Position numbers and translations under genes: made by a program. Positions 9,114 to 54,551 of a stretch of DNA of 64,000 bases are shown in pieces. Below the pieces are notes generated by a model. It ran no database searches. It was given only the letters and a program-made list of their open reading frames with translations, and had not been told where the DNA came from. Location: the NCBI GenBank assembly GCA_913774715.1, contig CAJYHS010000041.1, positions 1-64,000 on the forward strand, in the 5' to 3' direction. Within the stretch, counting starts at the first letter, position 1; every line of letters starts with the position of its first letter. Source of the stretch: an uncultured Siphonobacter sp. (GTDB lineage: Bacteria > Bacteroidota > Bacteroidia > Cytophagales > Spirosomataceae).

Positions 9114-9137
9114 ATGGCTGGTGCAAACACCAGCCAT
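9114..9137 (-). terminator. Intrinsic terminator of the ABC exporter gene, beyond the tandem array
   Basis: Perfect 10-bp stem ATGGCTGGTG / CACCAGCCAT with a 4-nt loop. On the minus strand it is followed by TTTCTTTTT. It lies directly after the tandem array, so the array is inside the predicted 3' UTR. Confidence 0.75.
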
Positions 9138-9261
9138 AACCCTAAACTCATAACCCTAAACTCATAACCCTAAACTCATAACCCTAAACTCATAACCCTA
9201 AACTCATAACCCTAAACTCATAACCCTAAACTCATAACCCTAAACTCATAACCCTAAACTC
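9138..9261. repeat. Telomere-like 14-bp tandem array (8 full units plus a partial one)
   Basis: Unit AACCCTAAACTCAT repeats head to tail at 9138, 9152, 9166, 9180, 9194, 9208, 9222 and 9236 without a mismatch. A ninth partial copy runs into the stop codon of the ABC exporter gene. On the minus strand each unit reads ATGAGTTTAGGGTT, so the transcript carries regularly spaced GGG runs. A degenerate copy in the opposite orientation (GAGTTTGGAGTTAAGGGTTTTGAGGG) lies at about 9006-9031, near the RNase H promoter. The 14-bp period rules out a coding repeat. Confidence 0.97.
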
Positions 9262-15576: not shown

Positions 15577-16455
15577 TTATAATACGTTAGCCGTCTGCTC
15601 TTTTATTTTTTCGAGATCGTCTTTCATCCCTACGACCAGTCGCTGAATGGTTGCATCGTTGGCTTTGGAACCAATGGTATTAATTTCCCGCCCAATTTCC
15701 TGAGCCATGAAGCCAAGCTTTTTGCCATTTCCTTCTTTTAGGACTTCCCGGAAATAGTCCAGGTGCGTCTGAAGGCGGACTTTCTCTTCGGCGATGTCGT
15801 ATTTTTCTACATAATACACCAATTCCTGCTCAAAGCGGTTTTTGTCGAAGCCATCTTCTCCCAGTAAATCGGTGATACTTTTCATTAATCGCTCGCGAAC
15901 GGCTGGAATCCGAAGGCCATCCTGTTGAGCTACCTGCTTCAGACCATTTTCTATACCGTTGATACAGTCACCAAAGATGGTGGTCAAGACCTGACCTTCG
16001 CGGTTTCTGAATTCCTGACATTCCGCTAAAGCCGTGCGAACCGCCTGGATAACCAATTGCCACTCCGCCTCCGATGATTCGCTTACCGTTTCGGTATTTA
16101 AAGCATTAGGCCAGGACATGGCTATTTTAAACATTTCCAAATCATCGAACGATTCCGTAATGTGGTAAAAACTTTCCCGTAAATCCTGGAAGTAGGTTTT
16201 TACTAAAGGACGATTTACTGAAACGGAAGCTTCGGCCTGAGCCGTTTTAACGACCTGTACTGAAAGTTCCAGCTTACCACGCTCGAGTTCCGTAGACAAG
16301 AGGTTTCGTAGTTCAATTTCCCGACTGGAAAAGCTACGAGGTAATCGGCAAAAAATATCTAATCCCTTTGAATTGAGAGTTTTAATTTCGGCAGTAACCT
16401 GTAAGCCATCCGCTTCAAGCACGCCCCGGCCAAAACCGGTCATGGATTTTAACAT
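15577..16455 (-). CDS. yicC: YicC/YloC family endoribonuclease
   Basis: Member of the YicC/YloC family, whose characterised members are endoribonucleases involved in RNA turnover. The 292-aa protein has both family landmarks: the N-terminal MLKSMTGFGRG with EIKTLNSKGLDIFCRLPR, and the C-terminal GKKLGFMAQEIGREINTIGSKANDATIQ. It starts 27 bp after the pdxA stop and ends just before a terminator, so the two form a unit. Pairing an RNase with a PdxA that bears an arginine-rich, RNA-binding-like tail is worth noting but may be chance. Confidence 0.93.
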   Translation of the reverse strand: MLKSMTGFGRGVLEADGLQVTAEIKTLNSKGLDIFCRLPRSFSSREIELRNLLSTELERGKLELSVQVVKTAQAEASVSVNRPLVKTYFQDLRESFYHITESFDDLEMFKIAMSWPNALNTETVSESSEAEWQLVIQAVRTALAECQEFRNREGQVLTTIFGDCINGIENGLKQVAQQDGLRIPAVRERLMKSITDLLGEDGFDKNRFEQELVYYVEKYDIAEEKVRLQTHLDYFREVLKEGNGKKLGFMAQEIGREINTIGSKANDATIQRLVVGMKDDLEKIKEQTANVL

Positions 16456-16482: not shown

Positions 16483-18273
16483 TTATGCTTCGGGGTTCTC
16501 GTCTGTTTTAGGTTTAGGTGGCGTTTTGGCAAACAACAGCGACTGAGAAATCTCCAGCAATTTCCGCTGGGTTTCTTCGGGCGTTTCCTGATTTCGTTGC
16601 TGACCCTGTTTAGGTTGCTGCTGACGAGGAGCTTCCCGTCGTTCCTGACGGTTTTGCGGTTCTTCGCGTCGTTCCTGATTGTTTGCGTTACGCTGGAAGC
16701 GATTGTTGCGATTCTGATTCTGACGATCTTCCCGACGTGGACGTTCACGGGGTTGTTGCGAGTCGTCTGAATTGCTAGCTGCTGGTTGCGAAGGCTGCTC
16801 CTGGCGATTGGGGCGATCTTCGCGTCGTTCCTGATTATTATTATTACGCTGGAAGCGATTGTTCCGGTTTTGACGATCTTCCCGGCGAGGCCGATCATTC
16901 TGGCGGTCTTCTCGACGGGGCTGTTGCTCCGGTGAAGGCTGTTCGTCAACCGGGCTTTCGGTTAGCTCAGGTAAGGTTTCAATAACTTCAGAAATGGTTG
17001 GCTGAGTTACCTCAATGACCACTTCTTCTGAAGCAACGATTGATTCCTCTTCCTGTGGCTGCTCTTCTCTTTTCGGACGATCCTCTCGACTGGGTTTCTC
17101 CTCTCTATTCGGACGATTATCCCGACGGCGATCTTCCCGGTTTTGTGGACGTTCGCGAGGCTGCTCATTACCCAGTTTCGGATCACGTTCCTGTTGGGTC
17201 GGAATCTCGATTACGGGAGGCGTGGCGTTCGCCCGTTCGGCTTTGTCCGCTTCAATTTCATCCCATTGCTCCCGGTTACGCACAATGTCCAGAGCCGTGT
17301 AAATGGCGTGTAACATTGAGCTATGATCGGCCAGATTTTTTCCGGCAATGTCATACGCCGTCCCGTGATCGGGGCTGGTGCGAACAATGGACAATCCCGA
17401 AGTGAAGTTTACTCCATCTTCAAAGGCCAACATTTTAAAGGGCATCAGACCCTGATCATGATACATGGCCAGAATGGCGTCGAATTTCTTCCAGTTATTG
17501 GCTCCGAAGAATCCATCGGCCGGGAAGGGTCCGTATACCAGATGGTTATTCTTGCGGTATTGATCAATTACGGGGATAATCACTTCTTTCTCTTCGTTAC
17601 CCAAAAGCCCGTCTTCGCCCGCGTGTGGATTCAACCCAAGCACGGCAATGCGAGGTTTATTAATACCAAAATCTTTATGTAAAGACTTGATAATCTGATT
17701 CAGTTTCTTGGAAACGGCCTCCTGACTGATGTTGGAACGCACCCGGCCCAGCGGAACGTGACCCGTCACCACACCAATTTTCAAACGTTCCGAAACCATA
17801 AACATCAGATATTCGGAGGACTGGAAAGCTTCGGCCAGATACTCGGTATGTCCGGGAAATTTAAATTCCTCAGACTGAATGTTGTACTTATTGATTGGAG
17901 CTGTTACCAGTGCCGAAATCAAACCCGCTTTGAGGTCTTCTACGGCTTTGGCCAAGCTTTGAAAGGCTGCCTGACCGGCTTCGGGATGCACTTTACCAGG
18001 TTCGACGTTAGTCTGGCTGTCATCAAAACAGGTAATCACGTTTACCATCTTATGATTCAACTGATCGGCTGAGGGAGCCGGGTTCAGTTGCCAGTCTTTC
18101 ATATCGTACAAATGTTTGTAACGATTCAGAACCCGCATGGATCCGTAGATCACGGGTGTAAAGTGTTTATTGAGGTGATTTCCGTGTAAGGCCTTGAGAA
18201 TTACCTCCGGGCCAATGCCGTTGTAATCACCCATACTGATGCCAATTATCGGCTTTTGTGCTTGCTCGCTCAT
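16483..18273 (-). CDS. pdxA: 4-hydroxythreonine-4-phosphate dehydrogenase PdxA with long disordered C-terminal tail
   Basis: Catalyses NAD-dependent oxidation of 4-phosphohydroxythreonine in pyridoxal phosphate synthesis. Residues 1 to about 345 are a complete PdxA: ISMGDYNGIGPEVILKAL, TAPINKY, metal-binding His in GHTEYLAE (H142), TGHVPLGRV (H172) and AMYHDQGLMPFK (H272), GLNPHAGEDGLLG and RTSPDHGTAYDIAGK. Residues from about 345 to 596 are low-complexity, rich in Arg, Glu, Asp, Asn, Gln and Pro (RREDRQN, NRNNRFQRN), closing with a more ordered TQRKLLEISQSLLF. Typical PdxA is 330-360 aa. The tail is in frame with no stop and uses ordinary codons, so it is probably translated. Tails of this composition are usually seen on RNA-associated proteins. 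Confidence 0.93.
   Translation of the reverse strand: MSEQAQKPIIGISMGDYNGIGPEVILKALHGNHLNKHFTPVIYGSMRVLNRYKHLYDMKDWQLNPAPSADQLNHKMVNVITCFDDSQTNVEPGKVHPEAGQAAFQSLAKAVEDLKAGLISALVTAPINKYNIQSEEFKFPGHTEYLAEAFQSSEYLMFMVSERLKIGVVTGHVPLGRVRSNISQEAVSKKLNQIIKSLHKDFGINKPRIAVLGLNPHAGEDGLLGNEEKEVIIPVIDQYRKNNHLVYGPFPADGFFGANNWKKFDAILAMYHDQGLMPFKMLAFEDGVNFTSGLSIVRTSPDHGTAYDIAGKNLADHSSMLHAIYTALDIVRNREQWDEIEADKAERANATPPVIEIPTQQERDPKLGNEQPRERPQNREDRRRDNRPNREEKPSREDRPKREEQPQEEESIVASEEVVIEVTQPTISEVIETLPELTESPVDEQPSPEQQPRREDRQNDRPRREDRQNRNNRFQRNNNNQERREDRPNRQEQPSQPAASNSDDSQQPRERPRREDRQNQNRNNRFQRNANNQERREEPQNRQERREAPRQQQPKQGQQRNQETPEETQRKLLEISQSLLFAKTPPKPKTDENPEA
16662..16889. repeat. Internal imperfect direct repeat in the PdxA tail
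   Basis: Two copies of about 70-77 bp begin with the same CTTCGCGTCGTTCCTGATT at 16662 and 16818, a 156-bp offset. Both then share CGCTGGAAGCGATTGTT and TGACGATCTTCCCG. They encode RREDRQN...NRFQRN...NNQERRE twice, so the tail has grown by duplication. Confidence 0.8.
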
Positions 18274-54232: not shown

Positions 54233-54551
54233 CGCTTTGTCGTACAAGAAAAAGAACTATACAAAAGTGCTTCCAAACCTGAGATCTGCGAAACGAAACT
54301 TTCCGAGTGCCCAATAAGTAGCGACGAATGACGAGTTTTGGGTTTTGGGTTTTGGGTTTTGGGTTTTGGGTTTTGGGTTTTGGGTTTTGGGTTGAAAAGG
54401 AAAATCCGTAAAGGTAGGGAGGAATAGGACGAGGGTTAGTGCCTGCCATGTCATCAAATACTGAAAAACAGCCAACCAAAAACTGAAAACCAAACTGACA
54501 GATTTTAAACAGAATTGCTTTGTTACTTCGTCCTTTAGAAATTGAACGACT
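54233..54551. other. Divergent intergenic region with a 7-bp tandem array
   Basis: 319 bp between the TonB-type gene (minus) and the response regulator (plus). It contains eight TTTTGGG units (54336-54391). On the minus strand CACTTTTG at 54269-54262 is a near match to the -7 element for the TonB-type gene, placing the array about 70 bp upstream of that promoter. The plus-strand part holds AAAACTGAAAACC-type degenerate sequence and no clear promoter. Confidence 0.5.
54336..54391 (+). repeat. Eight perfect TTTTGGG tandem repeats (G-quadruplex potential)
   Basis: TTTTGGG repeats head to tail eight times with no mismatch. Eight GGG runs with 4-nt T loops on the plus strand satisfy the usual G-quadruplex pattern twice over. 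Such short arrays can change length by slippage. The ORFs drawn across it (NPKPKTQ repeats) are artefacts. Confidence 0.97.

What the first reader, a model, noticed from the sequence alone, without database searches (positions are those of the whole stretch)
16483..17240. PdxA fused to a 250-residue arginine-rich disordered tail
A complete PdxA is followed in frame by a low-complexity Arg/Glu/Asp/Asn/Gln/Pro tail with two duplicated blocks and an ordered final helix. Known PdxA proteins end near residue 345. Such tails usually occur on RNA helicases and other RNA-associated proteins. The downstream gene encodes the YicC endoribonuclease. A vitamin B6 enzyme with RNA-binding or condensate-forming ability would be new.
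Basis: partly seen in the sequence, partly recalled or inferred. Interest (0 to 1): 0.6.

Follow-up and report, generated by a model that had tools for sequence, protein, structure and literature searches.

The report
Vitamin B6 enzyme with charge-balanced tail
A vitamin B6 biosynthesis enzyme in a group of environmental Bacteroidota carries a long, selectively maintained, arginine-rich but charge-neutral floppy tail; the same kind of tail sits at the opposite end of the same enzyme in sister genera, which suggests the tail has a real but still unknown job, probably in where or how the enzyme assembles.

Summary
Window 16483-18273 (-) encodes one 596-residue protein: complete PdxA (1 to ~345) plus a ~250-residue disordered Arg/Glu/Asp/Asn/Gln/Pro tail ending in a predicted helix. 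All six held species of the genus have the tail in frame, with dN/dS 0.07-0.26, so it is not an artefact or neutral read-through. Unexpectedly, sister genera (two named: Fibrivirga, Rudanella) carry the same kind of region at the N-terminus of PdxA instead (50-360 residues, 45 sequences); most other genera of the family and the rest of the phylum lack it. N- and C-versions share composition, not sequence: Arg 16-19% with little Lys, average net charge within 1% of zero, charges alternating more evenly than in shuffles. This is the profile of an arginine-enriched mixed-charge domain, rare in these genomes. That make-up argues against simple RNA binding, and the YicC neighbourhood is shared with tail-less genera, so the RNA link is weak. 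Best reading: a position-independent, composition-selected zwitterionic domain that governs PdxA assembly or localisation (condensate/scaffold client), with a solubilising bristle as main rival. Function is untested.

The parts
16483..18273 (-). pdxA open reading frame, 596 aa, core plus tail
   Evidence: single locus in the genome
17239..18273 (-). PdxA catalytic core, residues 1-345; His172, His217 and His272, aligned with E. coli-type PdxA chain positions 166, 211 and 266 and likely metal ligands (role from memory), are invariant in the 28-sequence alignment
   Evidence: TIGR00557/PF04166, PDB alignments, invariant columns
16486..17238 (-). Arg-enriched mixed-charge disordered tail, residues 346-596 (R 17%, K 3%, D+E 21%, N+Q 24%)
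   Evidence: composition; AF2 pLDDT <50; dN/dS
16918..17055 (-). acidic block in the tail (residues ~407-452, net about -9 per 30 residues); an acidic block also in L007, but not aligned in L005/L006
   Evidence: charge profile; alignment
16799..16873 (-). repeat block copy 1 (RPRREDRQNRNNRFQRNNNNQERRE region)
   Evidence: direct repeat D3; conserved in 5 species
16643..16717 (-). repeat block copy 2; the first 48 nt of the two copies are identical in sister species L004, suggesting recent conversion or re-duplication there
16534..16581 (-). predicted terminal helix, residues 565-580 (EETQRKLLEISQSLLF region), followed by conserved AKTPP...DENPEA
   Evidence: AF2; 59% identical L002-L005 over the last 40 columns
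15577..16455 (-). yicC, next gene downstream, 27 bases from the pdxA stop; same strand, likely same operon

Best explanation
The gene encodes an apparently intact PdxA (4-hydroxythreonine-4-phosphate dehydrogenase) with a C-terminal arginine-enriched mixed-charge domain. SHOWN: it is in frame, maintained by purifying selection at the protein level, conserved through the genus, and matched by a compositionally equivalent domain at the N-terminus of PdxA in sister genera. INFERRED: because composition, charge balance and charge mixing are kept while sequence, length and even the end of attachment are not, the domain works by bulk physical chemistry rather than as a specific binding motif. As PdxA is a dimer in its family, each particle carries two such chains; the likely job is to set how PdxA particles associate, by weak multivalent Arg-acid contacts that make it a client or scaffold of a cytoplasmic assembly. 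The terminal helix of the C-type may add a docking contact.
For: Same-genus conservation. N-type in 45 sequences of six genera plus a short ME[PQ]RQ seed in ten more. dN/dS 0.07-0.26 for C-type and 0.05-0.22 for N-type versus about 0.01-0.08 for cores. Arg 18.6 and 16.0% with Lys 3.1 and 1.7% (cores: Arg 3-5%, Lys 5-7%), net charge per residue -0.6 and -0.2%. Net charge/sqrt(charged residues) rms 0.27 and 0.41 where random signs give 1; 50 of 51 domains more evenly mixed than their shuffles. Rare elsewhere: ~850 sampled genes in three genomes gave, besides the window's own PdxA, one strong hit (a probable outer-membrane protein) and one weak one. Literature class: Arg-enriched mixed-charge domains localise proteins to condensates in animal cells (PMC12629991, PMC9324279).
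Against: No experiment. Alternating Arg/Asp peptides did not phase separate on their own in vitro (PMC9324279), so self-condensation is not assured. The tails are diluted with Asn/Gln/Pro (fraction charged ~35-45%), unlike the most charged animal examples. PdxJ, the next enzyme, has no room for a tail, so no B6-pathway assembly is indicated by shared tails. The 51 sequences are not phylogenetically independent.
Confidence: 0.4

Rival explanations
1. Zwitterionic solubility bristle: the tail is a hydrated, non-sticky polyampholyte that keeps PdxA soluble or spaced under crowding, cold, desiccation or salt, and does not mediate assembly.
For: Net neutrality and better-than-random local mixing are what is expected of an expanded, poorly interacting zwitterion; PMC9324279 describes alternating sequences as easily hydrated and poorly interacting. 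Indifference to the end of attachment fits.
Against: Strong Arg-over-Lys preference is not needed for solubility; Lys would serve as well. Rare among other proteins of the same genomes.
Confidence: 0.25
2. RNA-binding or moonlighting PdxA: the tail binds RNA, possibly together with YicC or the degradosome.
For: A similar Arg-rich segment on a DEAD-box helicase of the same genome; local net-positive stretches (+3 to +5 per 30 residues) around the repeat blocks; yicC immediately downstream.
Against: Net neutral, locally alternating; RG content low and no RGG-type architecture; yicC adjacency shared by tail-less genera; no literature on RNA-binding PdxA found.
Confidence: 0.17
3. Nearly neutral low-complexity expansion: slippage and duplication of GC-rich repeats, tolerated because both PdxA termini are free; purifying selection only removes stops and aggregating or charge-imbalanced variants.
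For: Length varies in codon steps, block duplication and homogenisation in L004, domain GC 58-60% versus core 50-53%, graded N-type lengths 16, 50, 75, 130-360.
Against: dN/dS well below 1 even in gap-free close pairs such as L076-L080; charge balance and Arg-over-Lys bias shared by N- and C-types; no held species of the genus has lost it.
Confidence: 0.15

Closest known systems
PdxA (TIGR00557, PF04166; E. coli 1PS6/1PTM)
   Same: Core over full length, family cut-off passed, conserved histidines, predicted fold
   Different: Solved PdxA-family chains are 316-367 residues; in a phylum sample of 158 genomes (155 with PdxA) no comparable tail was seen outside the window's own
Arginine-enriched mixed-charge domains of nuclear speckle proteins (Greig et al. 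2020, cited in PMC13269538; PMC9324279; PMC12629991)
   Same: Arg used instead of Lys, balanced by Asp/Glu, near-alternating charges, disordered
   Different: Animal splicing-related proteins versus a bacterial metabolic enzyme; here diluted by Asn/Gln/Pro; condensation untested
Disordered region of Bacteroides thetaiotaomicron Rho (PMC13269538)
   Same: Lineage-specific disordered region added to a conserved protein in Bacteroidota; charge conserved
   Different: Rho is an RNA enzyme, its region is Lys/Glu-rich with distinct positive RNA-binding motifs and a prion-like part; here Arg, alternating, on a non-RNA enzyme
Arg-rich segment of a DEAD-box helicase (L151 of this genome)
   Same: R/N/D/G-rich low-complexity segment in the same proteome
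   Different: Sits within an RNA protein and carries RG/GG elements; the PdxA tail has few RG

Membership tests
PdxA, 4-hydroxythreonine-4-phosphate dehydrogenase | passes the equivalog model cut-off | tested here: met
   TIGR00557 382.5 vs 290.35 bits
PdxA, 4-hydroxythreonine-4-phosphate dehydrogenase | conserved metal-site histidines (three in E. coli PdxA, role from memory) | tested here: met
   His172, His217, His272 align and are invariant
PdxA, 4-hydroxythreonine-4-phosphate dehydrogenase | enzymatic activity and homodimer | not testable with these tools
   needs purified protein
Arg-enriched mixed-charge domain (R-MCD) | Arg strongly preferred over Lys | tested here: met
   R 18.6/16.0% vs K 3.1/1.7%; cores the reverse
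Arg-enriched mixed-charge domain (R-MCD) | Arg balanced and interleaved with Asp/Glu | tested here: met
   net charge ~0; 50 of 51 mixed more evenly than shuffles
Arg-enriched mixed-charge domain (R-MCD) | sequence made up primarily of charged residues | tested here: inconclusive
   about 35-45% charged, the rest mostly N, Q, P, G, S
Arg-enriched mixed-charge domain (R-MCD) | drives recruitment to a condensate | not testable with these tools
   microscopy needed
RGG/RG-type RNA-binding region | clusters of RG/RGG | tested here: not met
   8 RG dipeptides in six C-type tails (about 1,480 residues); RG not among the commonest pairs of the N-type
Rho-type Bacteroidota condensing region | Lys/Glu-rich with discrete net-positive RNA-binding motifs | tested here: not met
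   Lys 2-4%; local maxima only +5 per 30 residues

The most novel reading that the evidence does not exclude
A central vitamin B6 enzyme of one bacterial family is organised into a cytoplasmic assembly by a portable, position-independent Arg-enriched mixed-charge domain, gained separately at, or moved between, its N- and C-terminus: a bacterial metabolic counterpart of the nuclear-speckle domains.
Probability: 0.25. Interest if true: 0.8.

Novelty: new variant of a known kind. Interest (0 to 1): 0.55.

Why it matters
PdxA is a textbook housekeeping enzyme, normally ~330-345 residues. Here its orthologs in one family carry the same physical type of disordered domain at opposite ends, with charge neutrality and Arg usage conserved while sequence is not. 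That is a natural replicate experiment: it makes testable whether bulk properties of a disordered region, rather than motifs, are selected, and whether bacteria use Arg mixed-charge domains to organise metabolism. It would widen the known reach of such domains beyond eukaryotic RNA-processing proteins.

Tried and rejected
Assembly or sequencing artefact: rejected, six species. Neutral read-through after a lost stop: rejected by dN/dS and simulation. Fusion of a formerly separate small gene: in tail-less relatives yicC follows pdxA closely in the same order and no donor was found in the genome. Functional tie to YicC: adjacency also in tail-less genera, so uninformative. Tail shared with PdxJ: no, the PdxJ stop-to-stop frame is 272 aa. 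Genome-wide habit of Arg-rich tails: not seen in ~850 genes sampled, nor in a whole-genome scan for the codon pattern of R-E-D-R, where 6 of 10 hits lie in this gene and the other 4 equal the control. Single origin versus two: the PdxA tree needs 4 label changes in all and 2 for extended versus not, with the C-type a 100%-supported clade, but an AU test does not reject all extended PdxAs as one clade (p 0.448), so left open. Other long open frames in the phylum (G362, G254, G270, G274, G285) have no Met-led N-extension and short C-ends; G311 and G305 were fetched too but not parsed by the script used. Literature: no paper on a disordered or RNA-binding PdxA found in the held library. Genus name of the window: not established; records of its genome or near it may be left out of the named collection.

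Full report
What is there. Window 16483-18273 on the minus strand is one open frame of 596 codons, the only PdxA place in the 5.7 Mb assembly. Residues 10-330 match the PdxA equivalog model at 382.5 bits (cut-off 290.35) and Pfam PF04166 at 371 bits; nothing in Pfam or NCBIfam matches the tail. PDB PdxA chains align up to residue ~334; His172, His217 and His272 align with positions 166, 211 and 266 of E. coli-type PdxA and are invariant in a 28-sequence alignment, so the enzyme looks intact (the metal role of these residues is from memory). AlphaFold2 gives a confident core, pLDDT below 50 for nearly all of 370-562, and a helix 565-580 at 65-69. The tail contains a block present twice (75 nt, 80% identical, 156 nt apart); in sister species L004 the first 48 nt of the two copies are identical, so the block is occasionally homogenised.

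It is real and selected. All six held species of the genus carry the tail in frame at 234-267 residues. Nei-Gojobori dN/dS is 0.07-0.26 in the tails against about 0.01-0.05 in their cores. The estimate leans on protein alignments of low-complexity sequence, but close pairs with few gaps agree (L005-L006: 0.17). A neutral simulation of the tail's DNA at distance 0.26 keeps the frame open in 0.4% of runs, and in none at 0.5 or more.

The unexpected part. In sister genera of the family, PdxA has no C-tail but an N-terminal extension of the same kind: 45 sequences of six genera (codes g3, g5, g9, g19, g26, g29) with 50-360 residues starting mostly MEQRQ or MEE/MEQQ, and ten more (g17, g26) with only a 16-21 residue ME[PQ]RQSEK-type seed. 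Two named genomes show it too: Fibrivirga algicola (L169) and Rudanella sp. (L171). N-type regions also show dN/dS 0.05-0.22, which argues that they are translated. In g3 and g9 there is a further insertion near core residue 87. Other genera of the family, including Runella (named loci L167, L184), and a phylum-wide sample (155 of 158 genomes with PdxA) have core-length PdxA or short ends; the long open frames there that could be parsed were upstream read-through without a methionine-led extension. A Rikenella MAG has a ~69-residue end with a few RG/DRG elements (L187). The PdxA tree makes the C-type a fully supported clade separate from the N-type clade, 4 label changes in all, but joining all extended PdxAs in one clade is not rejected (p 0.448), so independent gains versus one gain with relocation is open.

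What is conserved is physical. Averages for C-type/N-type: Arg 18.6/16.0%, Lys 3.1/1.7%, Asp+Glu 22.3/17.8%, Asn+Gln 18/23%, aromatic 1%, Cys 0; net charge per residue -0.6/-0.2%. The cores have a far lower Arg:Lys ratio. Net charge divided by the root of the number of charged residues has rms 0.27 and 0.41 against 1 for random signs, and 6 of 6 plus 44 of 45 domains mix their charges more evenly than their own shuffles, at scales up to ~10 residues; at 30-60 residues the C-type is no different from shuffles, because an acidic block (about 407-452) alternates with mildly basic stretches. Sequences within the family are related, so the counts are not independent, but N- and C-types agree without evident shared ancestry of the domains. 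This is the profile of an arginine-enriched mixed-charge domain.

How special to PdxA. In samples of 274 kb (own genome, with the window), 400 kb (same genus) and 400 kb (an N-type genome), about 850 genes, the only strong hits were the window's PdxA and a probable outer-membrane protein of the N-type genome. A codon-level motif scan of the whole own genome places 6 of 10 hits in this gene, the other 4 equalling the control. Among 16 DEAD-family matches of the genome one helicase has a comparable Arg-rich segment (L151). PdxJ has none.

Mechanism. The composition argues for a physical role. Alternating Arg/Asp domains are described as zwitterionic, well hydrated and poorly attracted to RNA, while blocky versions bind RNA and phase separate (PMC9324279); in animal cells such domains send proteins to nuclear speckles and drive their cohesion (PMC12629991). 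The best-studied Bacteroidota case, Rho of B. thetaiotaomicron, uses different chemistry: Lys/Glu-rich with discrete positive RNA-binding motifs (PMC13269538). I therefore favour a composition-driven assembly or localisation role (0.40), then a solubility bristle (0.25), RNA binding (0.17) and near-neutral expansion (0.15). The steps shown are fusion, disorder prediction, selection, recurrence at both ends, and charge statistics; everything about function is inference.

yicC does lie 27 bases downstream on the same strand, and YicC-family proteins are RNases (PMC10793500), but pdxA-yicC adjacency, with a divergent serA-like gene upstream, is found across many tail-less genera too. The neighbourhood is probably older than the tail and does not tell what the tail does.

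Noticed in passing
L032, L033, L105, L106, L109 (genera g3 and g9): PdxA of these genera has an additional low-complexity Ala/Pro/Glu-rich insertion of up to ~80 residues inside the core near residue 87, besides the N-terminal region; shorter insertions there in g17, g26 and g29.
   Followed up: partly
window 9135-9261: Perfect array of 9.1 copies of the 14-mer CATAACCCTAAACT beside an ABC transporter gene and an RNase H-like gene, essentially intergenic.
   Followed up: no
window 54335-54393: Perfect array of 8.4 copies of the 7-mer GTTTTGG between an outer-membrane-receptor-like gene and a response regulator gene.
   Followed up: no
L258:18078-19049 (N-type genome G009): A probable outer-membrane protein with an even denser Arg/Asp mixed-charge stretch (22 Arg and 22 acidic in 60 residues, no Lys).
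   Followed up: no
L187 (Rikenella MAG): PdxA with a ~69-residue C-terminal end containing Arg-rich NDRGDRP...GRGRRPERD, possibly another independent extension.
   Followed up: no
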